Below are positions 20,601 to 29,257 of a DNA stretch of 64,000 nucleotides, one piece after another (within the stretch, counting starts at the first letter, position 1; every line of letters starts with the position of its first letter). Source of the stretch: Pseudomonadota bacterium (GTDB lineage: Bacteria > Desulfobacterota > Desulfovibrionia > Desulfovibrionales > Desulfovibrionaceae); the NCBI GenBank assembly GCA_018822105.1, contig JAHJLB010000023.1:1-64000 (forward strand), in the 5' to 3' direction. Made by a program: the position numbers and the translations under genes. The notes beneath the pieces were generated by a model. The model was not told the origin of the DNA and did not search any database. It was given only the letters and a program-made list of their open reading frames with translations.

Positions 20601-20749
20601 AGCTCCTGACCCTGTATTTCACGCCCGTGTACTATGTGTACCTGGACAAGGCCCAGCGCAAATTCTCCGGCCTGTTCGGCCGCAATAAAGGCGGCCAGGC
20701 CCCAGGAGTAACCGCGCCTGCGGCGGACAAGGGGCCTGAGGCTCCTTGA
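17606..20749 (+). CDS. RND-family inner membrane efflux pump (MdtB/MuxB-like)
   Basis: A 1047-residue HAE1-type proton antiporter. The N-terminus MNPARIFIERPVMTTLVM and the early LPVSDLPNVDFPT block are typical of the MdtB/MdtC/MuxB subgroup. The proton-relay Asp pair lies in helix 4 (VGFVVDDAIVVLENIVRH), and helix 10-11 holds GFVGIIMLIGIVKKNAIMM. The start is GTG, overlapping the MFP gene. No outer-membrane TolC-like gene follows, so the channel must come from elsewhere. Substrate not predictable. Confidence 0.93.
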   Translation: MNPARIFIERPVMTTLVMAAILIFGVMAYFKLPVSDLPNVDFPTLQVSASMPGASPETMAASIATPLEKEFSNIAGIDSMTSTNTLGSTRITLQFSLERNIDAAAQDVQAAIASATRNLPSDLPTPPVLRKVNPADQPILYLAVSSPTMPLYQVSELAETLLAQRISMISGVAQVMIYGQQKYAVRVQLDPSQLASREIGVDEVAAAVRTGNSNIATGTLSGPLREYTVQASGQLNDAKAYRPLVVAFRGGAPVRLADVGDAIDSAENNKRFNRFNRVPALVLAVQRQPGTNTVGVVDAIKKVLPAYTSQLPASVKVETLIDRSESIRESVDDVKFTLVLTVLLVVLVIFLFLRNVSATIIPSLALPMSVIGTFACMLQFKFNLDNISLMALTLAVGFVVDDAIVVLENIVRHTEAGMLPREAALKGSQEIGFTIVSMTISLAAVFLPVLFMGGVVGRLFNEFAVTIMAAILISGFVSLSLTPMLASLMLKPGAHTAEHGRFYAVTERGFQALLRLYDTTLKWTMRHRRATLAFSLALLLATAGLFVLIPKGFIPSEDIGQLVGVTEAEQGISIEYMQEHQNRVADVIAADPNVEGFMSLVGAGGPNPAGNSGRLLIRLKPRRQRSMSADEVLQSLRKKLAGVVGIKTFLQNPPPINLGASYTKALYQFSLQSPNTAELFQHAQALEARLRELPELQDVNSDLQLKNPQLNLTIDRDKAAALGLTAMQIEDALGIAYGPREVSTIFAPNNSYKVLMELAPKFQRDPQAINLLYVRAASGKLVPLPSLIRQSAGVGPMAVNHSGQLPSVTISFNLKPGVSLGQAVDKVQGLARDALPAGFSTTFQGTAQAFKSSFQGLWALLIVSIVVIYIVLGILYESFIHPLTILSGLPSAGAGALLTLMLFRLDLNLYGFVGIIMLIGIVKKNAIMMIDFALEAQRTQGKDGATAIYEGALVRFRPIMMTTMAALMGTLPIALGFGAGAEARRPLGLAVVGGLMVSQLLTLYFTPVYYVYLDKAQRKFSGLFGRNKGGQAPGVTAPAADKGPEAP

Positions 20750-20762
20750 TACCCCCACTTCA

Positions 20763-20807
20763 CGCCGAAAGGGCCGGTTCAGTCTTCCTGAACCGGCCCT
20801 TTCGGCG
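20763..20807. terminator. Perfect 20-bp bidirectional terminator
   Basis: CGCCGAAAGGGCCGGTTCAG pairs perfectly with its complement across a TCTTC loop. It lies between the convergent RND pump and csoR-family genes. Confidence 0.8.
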
Positions 20808-20828
20808 TCGTGGCGGGGTCCGGGCCCG

Positions 20829-21116
20829 CTAGCCGTCGATGAAATCCGAGATGAGCTTGACGAGCTTTTCGTACTGGGCCACGGGATCTCCTGTGGCCTC
20901 GGACTGCTCCTGGCAGCGCATGATGTAGCGGCGCATGATCTGTCCCGTGGCCGAGCGCAGGGCCGAGCGCACGGCCCGCACCTGCACCAGGATGTCCTCG
21001 CACTCCTTGCCCTCTTCGATCATGCGCTGGATGCCGCGGATCTGCCCCTCGATGCGCTTCATGCGCGCGATGACATCCTTCTTGAGGCCTTCCTGATCCT
21101 TGATATCCTTGGCCAT
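20829..21116 (-). CDS. CsoR-family repressor, CstR-like persulfide sensor
   Basis: A 95-residue all-helical repressor of the CsoR/FrmR/CstR family, with the hallmark RMKRIEGQIRGIQRMIEEG. Copper-sensing CsoR uses a C-H-C set. Here Cys39 (KECEDIL) and Cys68 (YIMRCQ) are kept, but the His four residues before the second Cys is Tyr. Loss of this His with retention of both Cys is the pattern of CstR, which senses persulfides through a di- or polysulfide bridge. It follows a triple-rhodanese gene and a PhsA-like operon, which supports sulfur sensing. The start is the ATG at 21114-21116, preceded by GGAGG. Confidence 0.85.
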   Translation of the reverse strand: MAKDIKDQEGLKKDVIARMKRIEGQIRGIQRMIEEGKECEDILVQVRAVRSALRSATGQIMRRYIMRCQEQSEATGDPVAQYEKLVKLISDFIDG

Positions 21117-21440
21117 GTCAGCCTCCTTTGGCTCCTGGGCGTCGGCATGTCCCAAGCACATCCGGCGGCAGAACCGCTGCCTCCGCCCCTGCCCCTCTCC
21201 CCCATGCCCGCATGGGGTACTCAGGCGGCAGCGCGCACCCGTCACCCTCATGTTTGGCACCAATTCCAGCCCTTGGCAAGGGGCTGCCGGCCAAAGAATG
21301 CTGCGGTGGCCGCCAGAATGGTTCGGACCAGGGACTGCTGGCGGAATAGTTCGGATCGCATCAATCTGATTCGCTGCACGGCGCCACGCCCGCCAGGAGG
21401 CCGCAGACGACGCTGCGCCACGGCCTCCTGGCGGCACGGG
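21117..21440. other. Intergenic region between rhodanese and csoR-family genes
   Basis: 324 bases. A 12-bp stem, CGCCAGGAGGCC at 21391-21402 with its complement at 21422-21433, lies just after the rhodanese stop and contains a nested GCAG/CTGC pair. It may attenuate read-through. Nearer the repressor gene, CCCCATGC/GCATGGGG at 21200-21217, followed by GTAC, resembles the GTACCC...GGG palindromes upstream of the operon and may be an autoregulatory operator. No gene is seen here. Confidence 0.5.
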
Positions 21441-22604
21441 CTATTTCTTCTTGTTGTCCGTGATCTCGCAGACATTGTCCTTGGAGCACGTAATGGTGGC
21501 CTCCAGGTAGTACACGTCCTTGACATCCTTGCGCATTTCCCTGGTCATGTAGAAGGCCTCGCCGCTGCGCGCGCCGGTGGTGCAGGCAAAGACCACGGGC
21601 CTGTCAAAGGCCATGCCCTTGAGCTTCTTCTCCAGCTCGTTCACGGTCATGTTCACTGCGCCCTTGATGTGCCCGGCCTTGAACTCGTCGGGCTCGCGCA
21701 CGTCGATGACCATCAGGCTCTCGGGCTTCTCGGCCAGGATCTTCTTGAACTGCTCCACGTTGAAGGCGCCCTCCGCGCCGCCGGCCTGGACCTTGAGGCC
21801 GCCGCCAGCCGCGCCGTAGGCCTTGGTCCAGGCGGGCTCGCCGGCCTCGAAGACCTTCACGTTGCTGTAGCCGAGGGCCAGGGCCTTCTTGGCGCTGGAA
21901 TGGCTCAAGGGGCAGGCGTAGCCGCCGCAGAAGAACACCAGCTGCGCGGCCTTGTCCGCGGGCAGCAGGCCGGTCTTCTTGTCAAAGGCGGAGTCCGGGA
22001 TGGAGATGGCCGAGGGGATGCTGCCCTCCAGGAACTTGACCAGGGGCCGGGAGTCCACCAGGAGGAAGGTCTCGCCCTTGGTGATCATGTCCTTGACTGT
22101 CTCCAGGCCGATGGCCGGATAGACGTCGACCGCCTTGGCGGCGGGCTTGGCCTTGCGGCCCTTGGCCGACGCTGCGGCCTTGGCCGGCAGACCGGCCTTG
22201 ACCCATTCCGGATAGCCGCCGGGGAACACCTTCACGTTCACATAGCCCAGGGCCTCGGCCTTTTTGGCGGAGGAATGGGAGAGCCTGCACTCCGGGCCCT
22301 CGCAGTAATAGACCAGGGTGGTGTTCTTGTCCTTGGGCAGCAGGTCGAGCTTCTTCTCGAACTCGCTGTCCGGGATGGAGATGGCCGTGGGGATGTAGCC
22401 CTGCGCATACTTGGTCATGTAGGGACGGGCGTCGATGAGCACCACGCCCTCGGGGTGCGGCACCTTGACCAGGGGTTTCACGTATTCGATGGTCACAAGG
22501 TTCTTGTAGAACCAGTCCGGGTTGGCCGCCTGGGCCGTGGCCGCGAAGGCCAGGGCCAAAAGCGACAGCAGGAAGATTTGAGTCATCCGCTTCATGGTGC
22601 GCAT
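21441..22604 (-). CDS. Exported triple-rhodanese protein
   Basis: A 387-residue protein with a Sec signal peptide (about 1-26) and three rhodanese domains, about 35-140, 165-270 and 285-380. Each has a candidate active-site Cys: YYCEGPEC, FFCGGYAC and FACTTGARS. The first two domains also share an RLSHSSAKK/PLSHSSAKK block and a second Cys four residues after the first, so they look like an internal duplication. Rhodaneses carry sulfane sulfur as a cysteine persulfide. In the periplasm this protein could pass sulfur to or from the neighbouring molybdopterin enzyme. The start is the first ATG, with AGGAGAG upstream. Confidence 0.87.
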   Translation of the reverse strand: MRTMKRMTQIFLLSLLALAFAATAQAANPDWFYKNLVTIEYVKPLVKVPHPEGVVLIDARPYMTKYAQGYIPTAISIPDSEFEKKLDLLPKDKNTTLVYYCEGPECRLSHSSAKKAEALGYVNVKVFPGGYPEWVKAGLPAKAAASAKGRKAKPAAKAVDVYPAIGLETVKDMITKGETFLLVDSRPLVKFLEGSIPSAISIPDSAFDKKTGLLPADKAAQLVFFCGGYACPLSHSSAKKALALGYSNVKVFEAGEPAWTKAYGAAGGGLKVQAGGAEGAFNVEQFKKILAEKPESLMVIDVREPDEFKAGHIKGAVNMTVNELEKKLKGMAFDRPVVFACTTGARSGEAFYMTREMRKDVKDVYYLEATITCSKDNVCEITDNKKK

Positions 22605-22669
22605 CGCTCTCTCCTAGTGTTCGAGGGTTTGTTCATAGCCACGGGCCGGAGCGGTCCTCCGCGCCCGGA

Positions 22670-23419
22670 TCAACCGTTTTCGCCGGCGCCCGGCCCGTCC
22701 TTGTCCTGGGCGCTATTCTCCAGCGCGTCCTTCTCCAGCGCGTCGAGCCACAGCCCGTGGTGGTGCCGGGCATAGTCCTCGGGCACATGGCCCGTGAACA
22801 TGCTGCGCAGGCCGGGCCTTTCCTCCGGCGAGACGGCCGCCATGTAGATGTGCACCAGGAGCCCTGCGAAGACCAGGCCCACAGCCAGGTAGTGCAGGGT
22901 CACGGCCCAGCCCACGAGCCCCGTGGCCGAGGCCGGGAGGACCTTGGCGGAGAGGAGCAGCACCAGGCCCGTGAGCGCGATGGCCGCGCCGCCCAGCACC
23001 GAGGCCTGGGCAAAGGCCTTCTGGCCCATGTTGTAGTAGCCCTGGGGCGGCAGCTCGCCGCCGACCCCGAGGGTCATGCGGCCCATCTTGCGCGCCAGCC
23101 AAGCGAAATCTCCGGGCCGGACGCTGAAGACCTCGCGCAGGAAGAACCGGGCCCCGCGAGCGTTCACCGCCAGGTACCATGCCAGCCCCAGCACCCAGAC
23201 CACGCCCGCGGCCTCGTGGAGGACGAGCAGCGCCGCGCCGCCCGCGCTGCCCCCGCCGAACAGGCTCCGCAGGGCGTCCGGCAGCCAGGCCCCCAGGGGG
23301 TTCAGCCGCTCGTTCTTGATGAGCCCCAGGCCGCTGACCAGCAGCACCAGCCAGCAGCCCGCGTTGAACCAGTGCATGAGGATGTCGGATTTGTCGTGGC
23401 GCCTGATGTCGCTACTCAT
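22670..23419 (-). CDS. Cytochrome b subunit, formate dehydrogenase gamma/thiosulfate reductase type
   Basis: A 249-residue membrane protein with four helices. The first pair of haem ligands is suggested by SDILMHWFNAGCW (helix 1) and LHEAAGV (helix 2); another His lies in HYLAVGLVFAGLLVHIYMA (helix 4). This is the FdnI-like cytochrome b561 fold, which exchanges electrons between the quinone pool and a periplasmic Fe-S subunit. Its start overlaps the end of the Fe-S gene by eight bases, so it is the membrane anchor of the same complex. Confidence 0.85.
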   Translation of the reverse strand: MSSDIRRHDKSDILMHWFNAGCWLVLLVSGLGLIKNERLNPLGAWLPDALRSLFGGGSAGGAALLVLHEAAGVVWVLGLAWYLAVNARGARFFLREVFSVRPGDFAWLARKMGRMTLGVGGELPPQGYYNMGQKAFAQASVLGGAAIALTGLVLLLSAKVLPASATGLVGWAVTLHYLAVGLVFAGLLVHIYMAAVSPEERPGLRSMFTGHVPEDYARHHHGLWLDALEKDALENSAQDKDGPGAGENG

Positions 23420-24191
23420 GGCCGTCCTCCTTCTTCTCCTGGCCAGGCCCCGCTGCAGGCCCGGCGCCGGCCATGAGCTGCCGGCCCAGCATGACCAGCA
23501 CGCCCAGGCCCGAGAGGCCCACGGCCCACCGCACCGCCGGGGCCACGACCCCGGCCAGGAAGTCGAAGCTCAGCGGGTCCGCCGGCTGCACGGTCCAGCC
23601 CTGGGGCGCGGTGGAGGCGATGTAGTACATGTTGGGCCTGGTGTCCTTCTGCCTGGCGATGATGCGCACCACCTTGCCCTGGTTGGCGGCCAGCAGCTTG
23701 GCCGCATCGCTGTCCGGGTCGTTGATGTCTCCGAACACGCGGGCCCGGGTGGGGCAGGTGTCCACGCAGGCCGGCGAGAGCCCAGCCGCCCGGCGCTCCG
23801 GGCAGTAGTCGCACTTGTCGGCGATGCGCTTTTCCGGGTCGCGGAAGCGCGCGCCATAGGGGCAGGCGGCAATGCAGTTGCCGCAGCCGATGCAGAGCCT
23901 GGGGTCGATGACCACTGTGCCGTCCGCGGCGTTCTTGTAGGTTGCGCCCGTGGGACAGGCGGCCACGCAGGTGGGCTCGTCGCAGTGCATGCAGGCCCCG
24001 GGCTGGAAATGCCCGCGGCCCAGCTTCCTGGACCCGCCGGGGCCGTTTTCAACGGGCGGCGCGGCCTCCTTGACCCAGTTGCGCCAGGTCCCGCGCGACA
24101 CATGGTTGGCCTGCTTGCAGGCGGCCAGGCAGCCCTTGCAGTCGATGCAGCGGGCCGAATCGATGACCATGGCGAGCTTTTGGGCGCTCAT
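23412..24191 (-). CDS. Four-cluster ferredoxin-type electron transfer subunit (PhsB/PsrB/NrfC-like)
   Basis: A 259-residue protein with four Cys clusters in the usual order: CIDCKGCLAAC, CMHCDEPTCVAAC, CIGCGNCIAAC and CDYC...CVDTC. It wires the molybdopterin subunit to the cytochrome b. A C-terminal hydrophobic segment (about 207-230) should anchor it, as in HybA-like proteins. It has no Sec signal of its own, so it probably crosses the membrane with the Tat-dependent catalytic subunit. It overlaps that gene by four bases. Confidence 0.9.
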   Translation of the reverse strand: MSAQKLAMVIDSARCIDCKGCLAACKQANHVSRGTWRNWVKEAAPPVENGPGGSRKLGRGHFQPGACMHCDEPTCVAACPTGATYKNAADGTVVIDPRLCIGCGNCIAACPYGARFRDPEKRIADKCDYCPERRAAGLSPACVDTCPTRARVFGDINDPDSDAAKLLAANQGKVVRIIARQKDTRPNMYYIASTAPQGWTVQPADPLSFDFLAGVVAPAVRWAVGLSGLGVLVMLGRQLMAGAGPAAGPGQEKKEDGHE

Positions 24192-26398
24192 GCGGCCCCC
24201 TTCTTCTTCACGCTGACATAGGTCTCATGGATGGCGGAATTGCCGCAGATGGCGTCGAAGCGGCTCTCCAGGAGCTCCACGATGCTGGCCCCCACGCCCG
24301 TGGTGTGCGAGAGCCCGCCGGAGAGGGTGCCGAAGCCGGAGAGCATGTACACGGTGTCCTTGCGGATCTTCGGCGTGACCAGGGCGCGCAGTTCGCCCCT
24401 GCCCGCCGGGCTCTGCACCTGGACCACGTCGCCCTGACGGATGCCCAGTTCGCCGGCGGCCTCTTCGTTCAGCCAGAGGGTGTTCTCCGGCTCGAATTCG
24501 GACAAGAGCCCGTTGTTGGTGCTGCTGCCCTGGGTTACGCAGGCGCTGCGGCCCGCCACCAGCCGGAAGTTCCGGGCCGCGTCCGGGGAAGGCTTCGGCG
24601 GCGCGTAGACCGGCAGGGGATCCAGGCCCAGGTCCGCGTAGCGCGAGCAGTACAGTTCGATCTTCTGGCTGGGCGTCTTGAAGGGCTGGCCGTCCGTGCC
24701 GCCCAGGGGCGCATTGGGCGGATAGAACACCCCGTCGCGCTTCAGGATGGCCTCGGCCTCGGGGAAGGCGGCCAGCTGCTGCCTGCGGTAGCCGGCGATG
24801 TCGAAGTCAAAGGCCTCGGGGAAGCCCAGCCTGCCCGCCAGGGCCTTCAAGATGTCGAACACCGGGCGGCTCTGGTGCAGGGGCGCGATGACCGGGTCGC
24901 GCCAGACCAGACAGGCGCCCTCGGCCCCGGCCTGGAGGGCCTGCACCGGGTCCTGGCGCTCCAGGCCGCTGGGCGCGGGCAGCACCAGATCGGCCATCCA
25001 GGCCGTGTCGCTCATGGCGATGTCCACCACCACCATGAAGTCCAGCTTGTCGATCATCTCGCGGGTCTTGCGGCGCTCCGGCGCGGTGGCCATGGGATTG
25101 GTCTTGTAGACGAACCAGCCCTTGACCGGATACGGCGCGCCCTTGAGCACGGCCTCGCGGGTGAGCACAAAGGAGCCCTCGTCGTCGAAGAGCAGAGGCA
25201 CGCTCTTGGCGTCCACGCGGCCCGGGGGGTTGTCGTCGTACCAGGGCGGCTCGAAGGGCGCGGCCTTCTTCAGCCCCGCCGGGCGCGCCGGCACCAGCCC
25301 TCCGGGGCGGTCGTAGTTGGCCAGAAGCGCGTTGACGATGGCGAAGCTGCGGCGGATCTGGGTGGAGTTCTCGTAGTCCGAGGAGCGGCGGCCGGGATAG
25401 ACCATGGCTGCGGGGGCCGCGGCGGCCAGCTCGCGGGCCATGCGCTGGATGTCCGCCGCCGGGATGCCCGTCTCGCCCTCGGCCCAGGCGGGCGTCTTGT
25501 CCGCCACGTGGGCGGCGAGCCTGTCCAGGCCGCTGGTGCGCTCGGCCATGTACTTGGCGTCGTAGAGCTTCTCCTGGATGATGACGTGGGCCAGGGCCAG
25601 CATGAAGGCCATGTCCGTGCCGGGACGGATGGGGTGCCATTCCGAGGCCAGGGCCGCGCTCTTGGTGTAGCGCGGGTCCAGCACCACCACCTTGGCGCCC
25701 TTCTGCATGATGGACACCAGGTCCATGCTGTCGGGCGTCACCAGGGCCTCCAGGCGGTTGGCCCCGGCCAGGATGACGTATTTCGAGTTCTTCACGTCGG
25801 GCAGCGGCACGTCGCCGAAGGTGTCCACAAAGGCGCGGTTGCCCGAGAGCAGGCACAGGGACTCGTGGCTGGTGACGTTGAAGGAGCCGAAGGCCTCGGC
25901 GAAGCGGCTGACGAAGCCGCTCTGCATGTCCGCCCCGGCGCTGAAGAGCATGCCGCAGCGGGTGTGCTTGGCGCCGATGTCCTTCATCTTCGAGGCCGCC
26001 AGGTCCAGGGCCTCATCCCAGGAGATGGCCTTCCACCGGCCCTCGCCCCGCTCGCCCACGCGCAGCAGGGGCGTCTTCAGGCGCTCCGGGTCGTAGACCT
26101 GGGCCACGCCCGCGTTGCCGCGCGCGCAGAGCATGCCGCGCGACTTGGTGAACCTGGGGTTGGGGTCCAGCTTGACGATGACGCCGTTCTCCACCCGGGC
26201 GATGAGCCCGCAGCGGTTGAAGCACATGTCGCAGACACTGTACCTGGACTCCCAGGCAGGCGCCGCGGCGGGCGCGGCGGCGCGGGCCTCCGGGGCCGTG
26301 GCGGCGGAGACCGCTGCGGCGGCCACGGCGCCGGCCGTGGCTCCGGCCAGGCTCAGGAAGGCCCTCCGGGAAATGCGTGTGGCTTCTTTCTGGCTCAT
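24188..26398 (-). CDS. Tat-exported molybdopterin oxidoreductase, PhsA/PsrA-like
   Basis: A 736-residue catalytic subunit. The twin-arginine signal ISRRAFLSLAG is at 9-19. A [4Fe-4S] site uses Cys56, Cys59, Cys63 and Cys91. Cys182 (HESLCLLSG) is a candidate molybdenum ligand. The C-terminal domain binds the bis-MGD cofactor. The family includes thiosulfate, polysulfide, tetrathionate and arsenate reductases. The neighbouring rhodanese and persulfide sensor favour a sulfur substrate, but this is inference. It is the second gene of the operon that starts with cytochrome c. Confidence 0.87.
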   Translation of the reverse strand: MSQKEATRISRRAFLSLAGATAGAVAAAAVSAATAPEARAAAPAAAPAWESRYSVCDMCFNRCGLIARVENGVIVKLDPNPRFTKSRGMLCARGNAGVAQVYDPERLKTPLLRVGERGEGRWKAISWDEALDLAASKMKDIGAKHTRCGMLFSAGADMQSGFVSRFAEAFGSFNVTSHESLCLLSGNRAFVDTFGDVPLPDVKNSKYVILAGANRLEALVTPDSMDLVSIMQKGAKVVVLDPRYTKSAALASEWHPIRPGTDMAFMLALAHVIIQEKLYDAKYMAERTSGLDRLAAHVADKTPAWAEGETGIPAADIQRMARELAAAAPAAMVYPGRRSSDYENSTQIRRSFAIVNALLANYDRPGGLVPARPAGLKKAAPFEPPWYDDNPPGRVDAKSVPLLFDDEGSFVLTREAVLKGAPYPVKGWFVYKTNPMATAPERRKTREMIDKLDFMVVVDIAMSDTAWMADLVLPAPSGLERQDPVQALQAGAEGACLVWRDPVIAPLHQSRPVFDILKALAGRLGFPEAFDFDIAGYRRQQLAAFPEAEAILKRDGVFYPPNAPLGGTDGQPFKTPSQKIELYCSRYADLGLDPLPVYAPPKPSPDAARNFRLVAGRSACVTQGSSTNNGLLSEFEPENTLWLNEEAAGELGIRQGDVVQVQSPAGRGELRALVTPKIRKDTVYMLSGFGTLSGGLSHTTGVGASIVELLESRFDAICGNSAIHETYVSVKKKGAA

Positions 26399-26465
26399 GC
26401 TCGCTCCCGTTCAACAGGGGCAGGGGGCCGGCTCAGCAATGGCGCAGGCCCCCTGCGCCGTCATG

Positions 26466-26783
26466 CTAGTTGCACTTGGCCGGCGTGGGGGAATCCTTGG
26501 CGTAGTCGTGCAGGTAGGTGTAGATGTCCGTGCGGTCCTCGGGGGAAATATCCTTCCACTCCTTGGCGCACTTCACGCCCTCCCACTTGGCGAAGGTCTT
26601 CTTCCAATCGGCCTGGACCTTGGAGTTGGGTGAAAGGTCCGAGGCGGAAGAACCATGGCAGGTGCGGCACTTGGAGCGGTAGAGGTACTTCCCCTTGCGG
26701 GCGTTGCCCTCGGCCAGGGCCAGGCTCACGGCGGCCAGAACCAGGATCAGGGCGGCGACGATGCCAATGCTGCGGCGCTTCAT
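26466..26783 (-). CDS. Small exported monohaem cytochrome c
   Basis: A 105-residue protein with a signal peptide (about 1-24) and one haem-binding CRTCHG (39-44). Unlike typical class I cytochromes, no clear distal Met lies in the usual place; two extra cysteines occur near residue 75 and at the penultimate position. The start is the ATG at 26781-26783 with AAGGAG upstream. It is the first gene after the regulated minus-strand promoter, so it is likely an electron partner of the molybdopterin complex. Confidence 0.85.
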   Translation of the reverse strand: MKRRSIGIVAALILVLAAVSLALAEGNARKGKYLYRSKCRTCHGSSASDLSPNSKVQADWKKTFAKWEGVKCAKEWKDISPEDRTDIYTYLHDYAKDSPTPAKCN

Positions 26784-26863
26784 GGGACTCTCCTTGGGTT
26801 GTTCGTGTGTTCCGCGCAAAGAGCCCCCCGGCCCGCCACGCGATTTCTGCTTGCGTTGAACTC

Positions 26864-26892
26864 AAAATACCCATACCGGGTACATGTGTCAA
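26864..26892 (-). promoter_or_regulatory. Promoter of the cytochrome c/molybdopterin/rhodanese operon
   Basis: Read on the minus strand: a perfect -35 TTGACA (26887-26892), a 17-base spacer and a -10 TATTTT (26864-26869). The spacer and part of the -10 are covered by a palindrome (26867-26883). Confidence 0.65.
26867..26883. promoter_or_regulatory. CsoR/CstR-type operator 1
   Basis: ATACCC and GGGTAC arms around ATACC form a 6-5-6 near-perfect palindrome inside the minus-strand promoter spacer. A GC core flanked by TA/AC ends is the usual shape of CsoR-family operators. The repressor encoded at 20829-21116 is the obvious candidate. Confidence 0.6.
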
Positions 26893-26919
26893 GGGGCGTA
26901 GTTCCATTTCCTTGAAAAG

Positions 26920-26948
26920 TTGACCGGTACGCCCACGACGGGTACAAG
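26920..26948 (+). promoter_or_regulatory. Divergent promoter toward the 27035 and FmdE-like genes
   Basis: TTGACC (26920-26925), a 17-base spacer and TACAAG (26943-26948) on the plus strand. Its spacer holds operator 2. Confidence 0.45.
26927..26945. promoter_or_regulatory. CsoR/CstR-type operator 2
   Basis: GTACGCCCACGACGGGTAC is an imperfect palindrome with GTAC at both ends. It shares CGGGTAC with operator 1. It lies between the -35 and -10 of the plus-strand promoter. Confidence 0.45.
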
Positions 26949-27034
26949 CCCCTGAATATCCGGTCCTCCCGCTCCCGTGCCGAGCAGGGGCAGGGCGATC
27001 CGGACCCGGCACGCCAACCGCGAGGGAAGACCGC

Positions 27035-27481
27035 ATGGACCGCACGGACGTATTGCGAAAATTTTCCGAACACCTGGGCTACAACGAGGACGAGACGGCG
27101 CTTGTGGCCGCCGACGTGGCCAGAGCCCGCTTTGCGGAAGCCCACTTCACCACGGCCCTTGAATTCCTCATCGTGGCCACGGTGCTGCGCGCCGCCAACT
27201 GCAACTCCGGCTATGCCCCGGGCGACCGCTTCGTGCTCGACGCCGCGGGCAACTTCATCGCCAAGCGCTGCCCGCAACGCCTGTGCGTGTACCTCGTCAG
27301 CCAGCTGGCCCTGCCAGTGGCGCTCATCAACGAACGCTTCTGCGCGGGCCTGCCGCCGGAGGGCTTCCACTTCATGCGCCAGGTCCACTGCCTGGACACG
27401 GGCGTGGCCTGCAAGGGCTACGGCGGCGTGCTGGTGGAGATCACGGCCGTCAGCCGCCGCGCATTTCTCAAGGGCGCCTAG
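27035..27481 (+). CDS. Small Cys-containing protein, possibly TIGR04076-like
   Basis: A 148-residue cytosolic protein. The N-terminal helical part (about 1-50) is followed by C-N-S-G-Y-A-P-G-D-R-F, a KRCPQRLC pair of cysteines, and a C-terminal VHCLD...GYGGVLVEI. The order G-x-x-x-GD-x-F, CP-x-x-C and a late C-x-D resembles the TIGR04076 group of unknown function. That assignment is tentative. It is the first gene divergent from the cytochrome c/molybdopterin operon, behind an operator-bearing promoter, and is followed 43 bases later by an FmdE-like gene. Confidence 0.6.
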   Translation: MDRTDVLRKFSEHLGYNEDETALVAADVARARFAEAHFTTALEFLIVATVLRAANCNSGYAPGDRFVLDAAGNFIAKRCPQRLCVYLVSQLALPVALINERFCAGLPPEGFHFMRQVHCLDTGVACKGYGGVLVEITAVSRRAFLKGA

Positions 27482-27524
27482 GGCTGGCCCTGCAATCCGG
27501 CATCCACAATAGAGCGAGGCACGC

Positions 27525-29150
27525 ATGAACATCGGACCATACAGCTTCGAGGAATTCAAGGCCAAGGCCGCGGCCTTCCACGGCTACCCCGCGCCAGGCC
27601 TCCTGATTGGCGGGTACATGGTGGAGCTGGCCCGGCGCCACCTGCCCGAGGGCACCTTGTTCGACGCCGTGGTGGAGACCCCGAAATGCCTGCCCGACGC
27701 CGTGCAAATCCTAACCCCCTGCACCGTGGGCAACGGCTGGGTGCGCGTGCTGAACCTGGGCCGCTACGCCCTGGCCCTGTACGACAAGCACACGGGCGCA
27801 GGGTTCCGCGTCTGGCTCGACGTGGACAGGCTTGGACCCTATGACGAGATACGCTCCTGGTTCCTCAAGCTCAAGAAGAAGGCCGACCAGGACACGGACA
27901 GGCTCTTCGCCCAGATCGAGGCCGCCGGGGACGCCATCTGCTCGCTCGCCCCCATCCAGATGTCCGAGCGCGCGCGCAAGCACGCGAGCATGGGCCGCGT
28001 GGGGCTGTGCCCCATCTGCGCCGAGGCCTATCCCGCCTCGGACGGCGCCATCTGTCGGGGCTGCCAGGGCGAGGCCCCCTATCTGGCCGCGCCCCCAGCC
28101 CAGCTGGAGCCGGACCTGACCGCCGTGCCCGTGGCCCAGGCCGTGGGCCGCCGCGCCCTGCACGACATGACGCGCATCGTGCCCGGCGAGTCCAAGGGCG
28201 TGGCCTTTCGCGCCGGGCAGACCCTCACTGGCGGCGACGTCTGCCGCCTGCAGCAGATGGGCCGCTCCAACATCTACCTGGAGCAGGACGCGCCCCAGGG
28301 CTTCGTACACGAGAACGAGGCCGTTGTCGCCTTCGCCCGGCTCATGGCCGGAGAGAACGTGCTCTGCGACGAGACCCCGCGCGAGGGCAAGATCAATTTC
28401 CGCGCCGCCGCAACCGGCGTCTTCGTGCTGGACCGCCAGCGCCTGGAGGCCTTCAACCTCGTGCCGGACGTCATGGCCGCCAGCCGCCACCACGGCGTGC
28501 TGGCCGAGGCCGGCAAGGGCCTGGCCGGGGCGCGGGCCATCCCGCTCTACCTCTCGGCGGAAAACTTCCGCAAGGCCCAGGCCGTGCTGGCTGGCGGCCC
28601 GCTGTTTCGCGTGGCGCCGCTGCAGACCATGCGCGTGGGCGTGCTGGTCACCGGCACCGAGGTCTTCCAGGGCCTCATCGAGGACCGCTTCGCGCCCGTC
28701 ATCCGGGAAAAGGTGGAGCGCCTTGGCTCCTCGGTCGTTGCCGAGGCCATCGTGCCCGATGACGCCGGGCGCATCGCGGCCGCCGTGGGCGACCTGCTGG
28801 CCGCCGGCGCGGACCTCGTCATCACCACGGCCGGGCTTTCCGTGGACCCCGACGACGTGACCCGCAAGGGCCTTCTGGCCGCGGGCCTCACGGACATGCT
28901 CTACGGCGCGGCGCTCCTGCCCGGGGCCATGACGCTCCTGGGCCGCATCGCCGGCCCGGCAGGCGTCGCCAAGGTCATGGGCGTGCCCGCCTGCGCCCTG
29001 TTCCACAAGGCCACCAGCTTCGACATCCTGTTGCCGCGCGTGCTGGCCGGGCTGGAGATCACCCGCCAGGACCTGGCGCAGATGGCCGAGGGCGGGTTCT
29101 GCCTGGACTGCCGCACCTGCACCTTCCCCAAATGCCCCTTCGGGAAGTAG
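27525..29150 (+). CDS. FmdE domain, zinc ribbon and MoaB/MogA-like fusion protein
   Basis: A 541-residue fusion. Residues about 10-130 are an FmdE domain with FHGYPAPGLLIGG, Cys55 (PKCLPD) and Cys66 (TPCTVGNG), the conserved metal-site residues. A zinc ribbon follows at 162-180 (CPIC...CRGC). A middle region of about 190-360 precedes a molybdopterin-binding MoaB/CinA-like domain (VGVLVTGTEV). The chain ends with a Cys-rich CLDCRTCTFPKC tail. FmdE was named from formylmethanofuran dehydrogenase operons. With a MoaB-like domain, a role in molybdenum or tungsten cofactor handling is plausible, which fits its place beside a molybdopterin enzyme. Confidence 0.8.
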   Translation: MNIGPYSFEEFKAKAAAFHGYPAPGLLIGGYMVELARRHLPEGTLFDAVVETPKCLPDAVQILTPCTVGNGWVRVLNLGRYALALYDKHTGAGFRVWLDVDRLGPYDEIRSWFLKLKKKADQDTDRLFAQIEAAGDAICSLAPIQMSERARKHASMGRVGLCPICAEAYPASDGAICRGCQGEAPYLAAPPAQLEPDLTAVPVAQAVGRRALHDMTRIVPGESKGVAFRAGQTLTGGDVCRLQQMGRSNIYLEQDAPQGFVHENEAVVAFARLMAGENVLCDETPREGKINFRAAATGVFVLDRQRLEAFNLVPDVMAASRHHGVLAEAGKGLAGARAIPLYLSAENFRKAQAVLAGGPLFRVAPLQTMRVGVLVTGTEVFQGLIEDRFAPVIREKVERLGSSVVAEAIVPDDAGRIAAAVGDLLAAGADLVITTAGLSVDPDDVTRKGLLAAGLTDMLYGAALLPGAMTLLGRIAGPAGVAKVMGVPACALFHKATSFDILLPRVLAGLEITRQDLAQMAEGGFCLDCRTCTFPKCPFGK

Positions 29151-29231: not shown

Positions 29232-29257
29232 TGGCATAGGTGAAAAGGAGCCGCACC

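What the first reader, a model, noticed from the sequence alone, without database searches (positions are those of the whole stretch)
26864..26948. Two divergent promoters, each with a CsoR/CstR-type palindrome in its spacer
The minus-strand promoter (TTGACA-N17-TATTTT) carries ATACCC-N5-GGGTAC between its boxes. The plus-strand promoter (TTGACC-N17-TACAAG) carries GTAC-N11-GTAC in the same position. The last gene of the minus-strand unit is a CsoR-family repressor whose Cys/Tyr/Cys pattern looks like CstR. This would place cytochrome c, a PhsA-like enzyme, triple rhodanese, the repressor, a small Cys protein and an FmdE/MoaB fusion in one persulfide-responsive divergon. I know of no described system with this composition.
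Basis: partly seen in the sequence, partly recalled or inferred. Interest (0 to 1): 0.8.

Follow-up and report, generated by a model that had tools for sequence, protein, structure and literature searches.

The report
Sulfur-respiration operon switch, probably persulfide-sensing
A short DNA palindrome at the promoter of a sulfur-compound reductase operon in sulfate-reducing bacteria is very probably the binding site of a nearby repressor that may sense reactive sulfur, while the second palindrome reported beside it looks like a chance match.

Summary
Site 1 is real. TTGACA-N17-TATTTT (minus strand) carries ATACCC-N5-GGGTAC at 26867-26883. The core TACCC-N5-GGGTA lies upstream of the same cytochrome c/PhsA-like/FeS/cytochrome b/rhodanese operon in 46 of 46 assessable repressor-linked loci from 11 genera (40 perfect, 6 one mismatch), against 0 of 15 homologous operons with no repressor gene on the contig held. 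In 44 of 46 it fills the same 17-bp spacer. It is very probably a CsoR-family operator.

Site 2 is not supported. Its promoter frame recurs, but GTAC-N11-GTAC occurs about once per 64 kb of genus DNA and in none of 8 homologous FmdE promoters. The FmdE side is separable; there is no conserved divergon.

The repressor is Cys-Tyr-Cys in 66 of 69 loci, lacking the copper-site His. Other predicted targets are YeeE/YedE sulfur transport (10 of 12 genomes) and CopA (8 of 13 assessable). Sulfane sulfur is the likeliest effector; copper or dual sensing is not excluded. The repressor probably has its own promoter. New variant of a known kind: a CstR/ScCsoR-like switch on sulfur respiration.

The parts
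26864..26892 (-). sigma-70-type promoter of the operon: -35 TTGACA (26892-26887), 17-bp spacer, -10 TATTTT (26869-26864)
   Evidence: same TTGAC-N18-TA frame in 44 of 46 homologous loci
26867..26883 (.). CsoR-family operator, ATACCC-N5-GGGTAC, filling most of the spacer and overlapping the -10 box
   Evidence: core in 46 of 46 assessable repressor-linked operons, 0 of 15 operons without a repressor gene on the contig held
26466..26783 (-). small c-type cytochrome with signal peptide (by eye) and CxxCH, first gene of the operon
   Evidence: PF13442
24188..26398 (-). PhsA/PsrA-like molybdopterin catalytic subunit with twin-arginine signal (by eye)
   Evidence: PF00384; PhsA model 524.9 bits, below its cut-off of 694; best solved chain 2vpw_A 'thiosulfate reductase', E 1.4e-117
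23412..24191 (-). 4Fe-4S subunit
   Evidence: PF13247
22670..23419 (-). cytochrome b561-type membrane subunit
   Evidence: PF01292
21441..22604 (-). three-domain rhodanese with probable signal peptide (by eye)
   Evidence: PF00581, 3 stretches
20829..21116 (-). CsoR-family repressor (C39, Y64, C68), the only PF02583 gene found in the genome
   Evidence: CYC in 66 of 69 loci
21199..21279 (-). region upstream of the repressor gene: TTGCCA motif and GC-rich inverted repeat TACCCCATGCGGGCATGGGGG; probable own promoter, possible autoregulatory site
   Evidence: similar repeat in window, L032, L033, L034, L036, L037, L038; not in L035 or L039-L042
26920..26948 (+). promoter of the rightward unit, TTGACC-N17-TACAAG; the GTAC-N11-GTAC in it is judged a chance match
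   Evidence: TTGACC frame before FmdE in 8 relatives, palindrome in none
27035..27481 (+). 148-aa Cys-containing protein, no family match; judged not part of the regulon
   Evidence: found in 6 of 199 family genomes, the window's own included
27525..29150 (+). FmdE / zinc-finger / MoCF_biosynth fusion; judged not part of the regulon
   Evidence: PF02663, PF23475, PF00994

Best explanation
26867-26883 is the operator of the CsoR-family repressor encoded at 20829-21116. In the thiol form the repressor binds TACCC-N5-GGGTA between the -35 and -10 boxes and keeps RNA polymerase off the cytochrome c / PhsA-like / FeS / cytochrome b / rhodanese operon. Sulfane sulfur (persulfide or polysulfide) modifies C39 and/or C68, the repressor leaves, and a periplasmic thiosulfate- or polysulfide-reducing enzyme with its rhodanese is made; the YeeE/YedE transporter genes carry matching sites. 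The rightward small-Cys/FmdE unit has an ordinary promoter and is not controlled through site 2. Shown by sequence and conservation: the promoter, the operator motif, its association with the repressor gene, the C-Y-C residues, the other sites. Inferred: binding, repression, effector, enzyme substrate, periplasmic location.
For: Operator: 46 of 46 assessable repressor-linked operons have the core within about 450 bp upstream (40 perfect, 6 with one mismatch), shuffles 0.01 and 0.61; 44 of 46 have it in one promoter frame, there 36 perfect and 8 with one mismatch. The 46 come from 11 genera, 25 of them from one genus and 6 from the window's. 0 of 15 phsA-like operons without a repressor gene on the contig held have it (best 3-4 mismatches), and in 14 of those 15 genomes, of unstated completeness, no CsoR-family gene was found. 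Of 75 perfect ATACCC-N5-GGGTAT sites listed, 25 lie within 10 kb of a CsoR-family gene (about 0.4 expected), at 63-288 bp or 6.4-7.8 kb. One CsoR-family gene in the genome. Effector: C-Y-C in 66 of 69; where copper CsoR and InrS have His it has Tyr, as chain 7mq1 has Asn (7MQ2, same sequence, is named CstR in PMC9774590). Targets are sulfur genes: PhsA-like best match 2vpw, rhodanese, a YeeE/YedE Sulf_transp pair with a site within one mismatch in 10 of 12 genomes, a rhodanese-like ORF (by eye) in a genome of another genus (L243). S. coelicolor ScCsoR, a sulfane-sulfur sensor, has the site ATACC-N6-GGTAT (PMC7533328, passages).
Against: No binding or expression data. CopA promoters in 8 of 13 assessable genus genomes, the window's own included, carry an ATACC-N7-GGTAT palindrome, which points to copper or dual sensing. 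Copper CsoR and ScCsoR operators look alike (PMC7533328), so the site cannot name the effector. Genome G250 has the operon and site (L053, L084), but no repressor was found (87% complete). YeeE sites have 3 mismatches in G111 and G084. 50 of the 75 perfect sites are not near a repressor gene (not all those genomes were), and the reversed control pattern also occurs there, in 29 genomes by my count against 92 for the pattern. TTHA1953, a functional CstR relative, kept its DNA binding with NaHS (PMC10318464, section 11). 22 of 69 repressor loci had no such operon on the repressor's strand in the fetched stretch and one was cut off.
Confidence: 0.7

Rival explanations
1. The repressor is a copper (or dual copper and sulfane-sulfur) sensor; the operon is part of a copper-stress or Cu-sulfide response.
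For: ATACC-N7-GGTAT inside the CopA promoter in 8 of 13 assessable genus genomes, a perfect ATACCC-N5-GGGTAT in G111; one CsoR-family gene in the window's genome; two Cys alone can bind Cu(I) (general knowledge).
Against: Tyr in place of the third-ligand His in 66 of 69 loci; the CopA promoter pattern was found in 8 genomes of this genus and, of 288 family genomes, otherwise only as one unrelated near match, whereas the sulfur-operon site recurs in 11 genera; sites at sulfur-transport genes. Whether G298 and G299, two of the 8, have the repressor was not examined.
Confidence: 0.22
2. One reading: one persulfide-responsive divergon with both palindromes bound and FmdE/small-Cys co-regulated.
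For: Both motifs are present letter for letter, and site 2 exceeds dinucleotide shuffles of the window (0.01); the promoters are about 30 bp apart, so a repressor at site 1 might still affect the rightward one.
Against: Site 2 has other spacing, occurs about once per 64 kb of genus DNA, is absent in 8 FmdE promoters and before 5 small-Cys homologues; 7 of those 8 FmdE promoters have another inverted repeat, TTATG-N10-CATAA, past the -10; the neighbour across the promoter changes.
Confidence: 0.06
3. Another regulator binds site 1 and the CsoR link is incidental.
For: No binding test; G250 has the site without a detected repressor.
Against: Site and repressor gene occur together in 46 of 46 loci and are both missing in 14 of 15 control genomes; other CsoR-family genes in the family have the same perfect palindrome at 63-288 bp by listed coordinates (12 sites); the site resembles published CsoR/ScCsoR operators.
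Confidence: 0.04

Closest known systems
CstR of Staphylococcus aureus and relatives (7mq1/7mq2, B. licheniformis YrkD)
   Same: CsoR-family protein with two Cys at the same positions and no His third ligand (7mq1); linked to rhodanese and sulfur genes
   Different: Described regulons oxidise or detoxify sulfide (sqr, pdo, cstAB); here a respiratory thiosulfate/polysulfide-reductase-like operon in anaerobes; Tyr where 7mq1 has Asn; several targets predicted
ScCsoR of Streptomyces coelicolor (PMC7533328, passages)
   Same: Sulfane-sulfur-released repressor, Cys pair 29 residues apart (Cys37/Cys66), operator ATACC-N6-GGTAT in the promoter, rhodanese among targets
   Different: Controls persulfide dioxygenase, rhodanese and a sulfite transporter; spacing N6 there, N7 here
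TTHA1953 of Thermus thermophilus (PMC10318464, passages and section 11)
   Same: CsoR-family protein controlling dissimilatory sulfur metabolism and a cytochrome c gene, Cys39 and Cys68
   Different: Sulfur oxidation (Sox); operator TACnnTACnnnnGTAnnGTA; targets far from its gene
PhsABC / PsrABC thiosulfate and polysulfide reductases
   Same: Mo catalytic subunit + 4Fe-4S + membrane subunit; best solved match 2vpw
   Different: Extra cytochrome c and triple rhodanese; PhsA model score below its curated cut-off

Membership tests
CsoR/RcnR family (PF02583) | HMM match over the cut-off | tested here: met
   85.2 bits against 22.8
Copper-sensing CsoR | Cys-His-Cys Cu(I) ligands (recalled definition) | tested here: not met
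   C39, Y64, C68; CYC in 66 of 69 loci
Copper-sensing CsoR | operator at copper efflux genes | tested here: inconclusive
   palindrome before CopA in 8 of 13 assessable genus genomes
CstR-type persulfide repressor | two Cys at the CsoR Cys positions, no His between | tested here: met
   alignment to 7mq1 and copper CsoRs
CstR-type persulfide repressor | genomic link to rhodanese and sulfur genes | tested here: met
   46 assessable operon-linked loci of 69
CstR-type persulfide repressor | operator over the promoter of the sulfur operon | tested here: met
   44 of 46 in one promoter frame; sequence evidence only
CstR-type persulfide repressor | release by persulfide/polysulfide, not by metals | not testable with these tools
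   needs purified protein
CstR-type persulfide repressor | groups with CstR in a family tree | not tested
   no tree built; the protein is 95 aa
PhsA/PsrA thiosulfate/polysulfide reductase | closest to PhsA/PsrA among Mo oxidoreductases | tested here: met
   best NCBIfam match PhsA, best solved chain 2vpw
PhsA (NCBIfam PRK15488 equivalog) | score over the curated cut-off | tested here: not met
   524.9 against 694 bits: a relative, not the equivalog

The most novel reading that the evidence does not exclude
A distinct Cys-Tyr-Cys branch of the CsoR family is the sulfane-sulfur switch of anaerobic sulfur respiration in Desulfovibrionaceae, turning on a periplasmic thiosulfate/polysulfide reductase with a rhodanese, sulfur import (YeeE/YedE, in some species apparently a selenoprotein) and, in Humidesulfovibrio, copper export as one regulon. 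The persulfide sensor would thus regulate energy metabolism rather than sulfide detoxification.
Probability: 0.45. Interest if true: 0.65.

Novelty: new variant of a known kind. Interest (0 to 1): 0.52.

Why it matters
How sulfate reducers sense intermediate sulfur species and choose among sulfate, thiosulfate and polysulfide is, as far as I know, little understood. A conserved operator-repressor pair in 11 genera of the family gives a direct, testable handle, and would extend CstR-like persulfide sensing from aerobic detoxification to anaerobic respiration. In the listings of six searches of the held PMC library I saw by title or start of abstract no paper that describes CsoR/CstR control of a phs/psr-like operon in sulfate reducers. 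Several listings were cut (for example 15 of 27 papers, 12 of 30), I read passages of only some papers, and subscription journals are mostly not held.

Tried and rejected
Rejected: site 2 as an operator and the divergon as one conserved unit. Considered but not adopted as the lead: a copper regulon. The G+C-rich inverted repeat before the repressor gene is conserved in part of the genus but not explained. DUF4405: the gene behind the window genome's second perfect site was found in no other genus genome (1 of 15), so that site could not be tested by conservation. TunR literature search: no paper held. No structure prediction and no repressor tree were made. The fold after the YeeE TGA was not significant (z -0.74 and -0.46). 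Two papers on sulfate reducers that a search listed for the word CsoR (PMC10989961, PMC7376266) contain only the author name Csordas.

Dropped before counts: 22 repressor loci without cytC/phsA on the repressor's strand in the fetched stretch, and L043 (upstream cut), are outside the 46. In L221 and L230 the perfect match lies further upstream and the one in the promoter has one mismatch; L231 and L233 have the palindrome but not the promoter frame. In one search, CopA locus L139 was misplaced by a contig end and not assessed; the lower-identity ATPases L146-L151 (one of them G250's only match) were left out. One search uses only the 75 sites that one search listed; more were not listed. The 46 loci are not independent (25 from one genus). 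Of the 11 related loci, 8 lie on contigs already (L084, L088, L106) are new. Among the 15 control loci, L100's genome has a CsoR-family gene elsewhere, and several control contigs are short.

Full report
What the letters show. The two promoter-like elements and the motifs described are present at the stated places. The minus-strand one, TTGACA-N17-TATTTT (26892-26864), is the only sigma-70-type match in 20700-27700. The window lies in a 3.17-Mb genome; records of the closest relatives carry titles such as Humidesulfovibrio, Desulfovibrio and Desulfovibrionales.

The genes. Leftward: small cytochrome c (PF13442), a molybdopterin enzyme closest to thiosulfate/polysulfide reductase (best NCBIfam model PhsA but under its cut-off; best solved chain 2vpw), a 4Fe-4S subunit, a cytochrome b561-type subunit, a triple rhodanese, and a CsoR-family repressor, the only PF02583 gene found in the genome. 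Signal sequences that I read by eye suggest that enzyme, cytochrome and rhodanese are periplasmic. Rightward: a 148-aa Cys-containing protein without a family match and an FmdE/zinc-finger/MoCF fusion.

Site 1 is an operator. I searched 297 genomes of the order for repressor homologues (119 with a match), took stretches around the 68 best matches outside the window and examined these 69 loci with the window. In 46, from 11 genera (25 loci from one genus, 6 from the window's), the operon lay with the repressor and its upstream region could be read; all 46 hold TACCC-N5-GGGTA within about 450 bp (40 perfect, 6 with one mismatch). Shuffles of the same regions give 0.01 and 0.61 loci on average. 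In 44 the arrangement is TTGAC(A)-N17-TA(T) with the palindrome filling the spacer, there 36 perfect and 8 with one mismatch; L231 and L233 have it in another frame. A second set, fetched through PhsA, gave 11 of 11 in the related loci L082-L091 and L106 (8 of them contigs already counted, 3 new) and 0 of 15 in more distant loci without a repressor gene on the contig held (best 3-4 mismatches). In 14 of those 15 genomes, of unstated completeness, no CsoR-family gene was found, the exception being L100's. Among 75 perfect ATACCC-N5-GGGTAT sites listed for the family, 25 lie within 10 kb of a CsoR-family gene, against about 0.4 expected. Against this: 50 of the 75 are not near one, and the reversed control pattern also occurs, in 29 genomes by my count against 92, so many single sites are background; and G250 has operon and site, but no repressor was found in its 87%-complete assembly.

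Site 2 is not. GTAC-N11-GTAC occurs 6 times in 387 kb of genus DNA, the window included, though dinucleotide shuffles give less. The promoter frame beginning TTGACC recurs before FmdE in 8 relatives, the palindrome in none. Five homologues of the small-Cys gene have neither motif in 300 bp upstream. In G111 the small-Cys/FmdE pair lies on another contig than the operon, and in L032, L033 and L084 the operon faces the homologue of the gene at 29240 instead. The divergon is therefore a local arrangement. Because the promoters are close, an indirect effect of the repressor on the rightward promoter is not excluded.

The repressor's own gene. A gap of 324 bp separates it from the rhodanese gene, with a TTGCCA motif and a G+C-rich inverted repeat that recurs in L032, L033, L034, L036, L037 and L038, including two loci without the operon (L034, L036); the copy behind the operon of L035 lacks the repeat, as do L039-L042. 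I infer a separate promoter. In L047, of another genus, a perfect TACCC-N5-GGGTA lies about 107 bp before the repressor gene, and L051 has the same half-sites at wider spacing, which suggests autoregulation there.

Wider regulon in the genus. ATACCC-N5-GGGTAT-like sites within one mismatch precede a pair of YeeE/YedE (Sulf_transp) genes in 10 of the 12 genomes in which the gene was found, the window's genome included; G111 and G084 have 3 mismatches. In the window's genome a perfect site in the TTGACAC frame precedes a DUF4405 gene. In 8 of 13 assessable genomes a CopA promoter holds ATACC-N7-GGTAT; as a promoter pattern it was found in these 8 genomes and otherwise, among 288 family genomes, only as one unrelated near match. 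In six genomes of another genus (g7) a second site precedes ORFs that look by eye like an iron-sulfur protein and a membrane protein, and in one g5 genome a rhodanese-like ORF (no family search made).

Effector. The protein aligns with copper CsoR, InrS and chain 7mq1; where copper sensors have His it has Tyr64, between C39 and C68; the triad is C-Y-C in 66 of 69 loci, the others CAC, CRF and CSC. Published relatives: ScCsoR, released by sulfane sulfur, with ATACC-N6-GGTAT sites (PMC7533328, passages); CstR and YrkD (PMC9774590 and PMC9918477, passages); TTHA1953, which controls sulfur oxidation but did not respond to NaHS (PMC10318464, passages and section 11). BigR, another persulfide sensor, controls a yeeE-yedE operon in Acinetobacter (PMC7315123, passages). 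A PhsA of another sulfate reducer, Oceanidesulfovibrio marinus, rises with thiosulfate (PMC10989961, passages); I did not test whether it is homologous to this operon. I put sulfane sulfur first, with copper or dual sensing as the main rival because of CopA.

Verdict. The system is a new variant of a known kind: a CsoR-family, CstR/ScCsoR-like repressor placed on a sulfur-respiration operon, in 11 genera of the family. Literature listings showed me no description of it, within the limits of the held library and of cut listings. Binding, effector and enzyme activity are untested.

Noticed in passing
L128 (G000:C33:61655-62149), L126, L127: The YeeE gene has an in-frame TGA exactly where 9 of 12 genus homologues have the Cys of ADGCPSGHG, so it is probably a selenoprotein; YeeE/YedE selenoproteins (GUxSG) are already listed in print (PMC13188914, passages). 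A tRNA-Sec hit over the cut-off is in the window's genome; the fold after the TGA was not significant.
   Followed up: partly
FmdE promoters of L037-L042 and L088: A conserved inverted repeat TTATG-N10-CATAA lies just past the -10 box in 7 loci, absent in the window and L106; it looks like a site of another regulator, perhaps a molybdate/tungstate one (recalled, not tested).
   Followed up: no
window 21199-21219: G+C-rich inverted repeat TACCCCATGCGGGCATGGGGG upstream of the repressor gene, conserved in part of the genus; function unknown.
   Followed up: partly
window 27035-27481: 148-aa Cys-containing protein without any family match, patchily distributed (6 of 199 family genomes, the window's own included), next to FmdE in G111.
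   Followed up: partly
L034 and L035 (genome G211): Two repressor copies in one genome, one alone with the conserved upstream repeat, one behind the operon without it.
   Followed up: no
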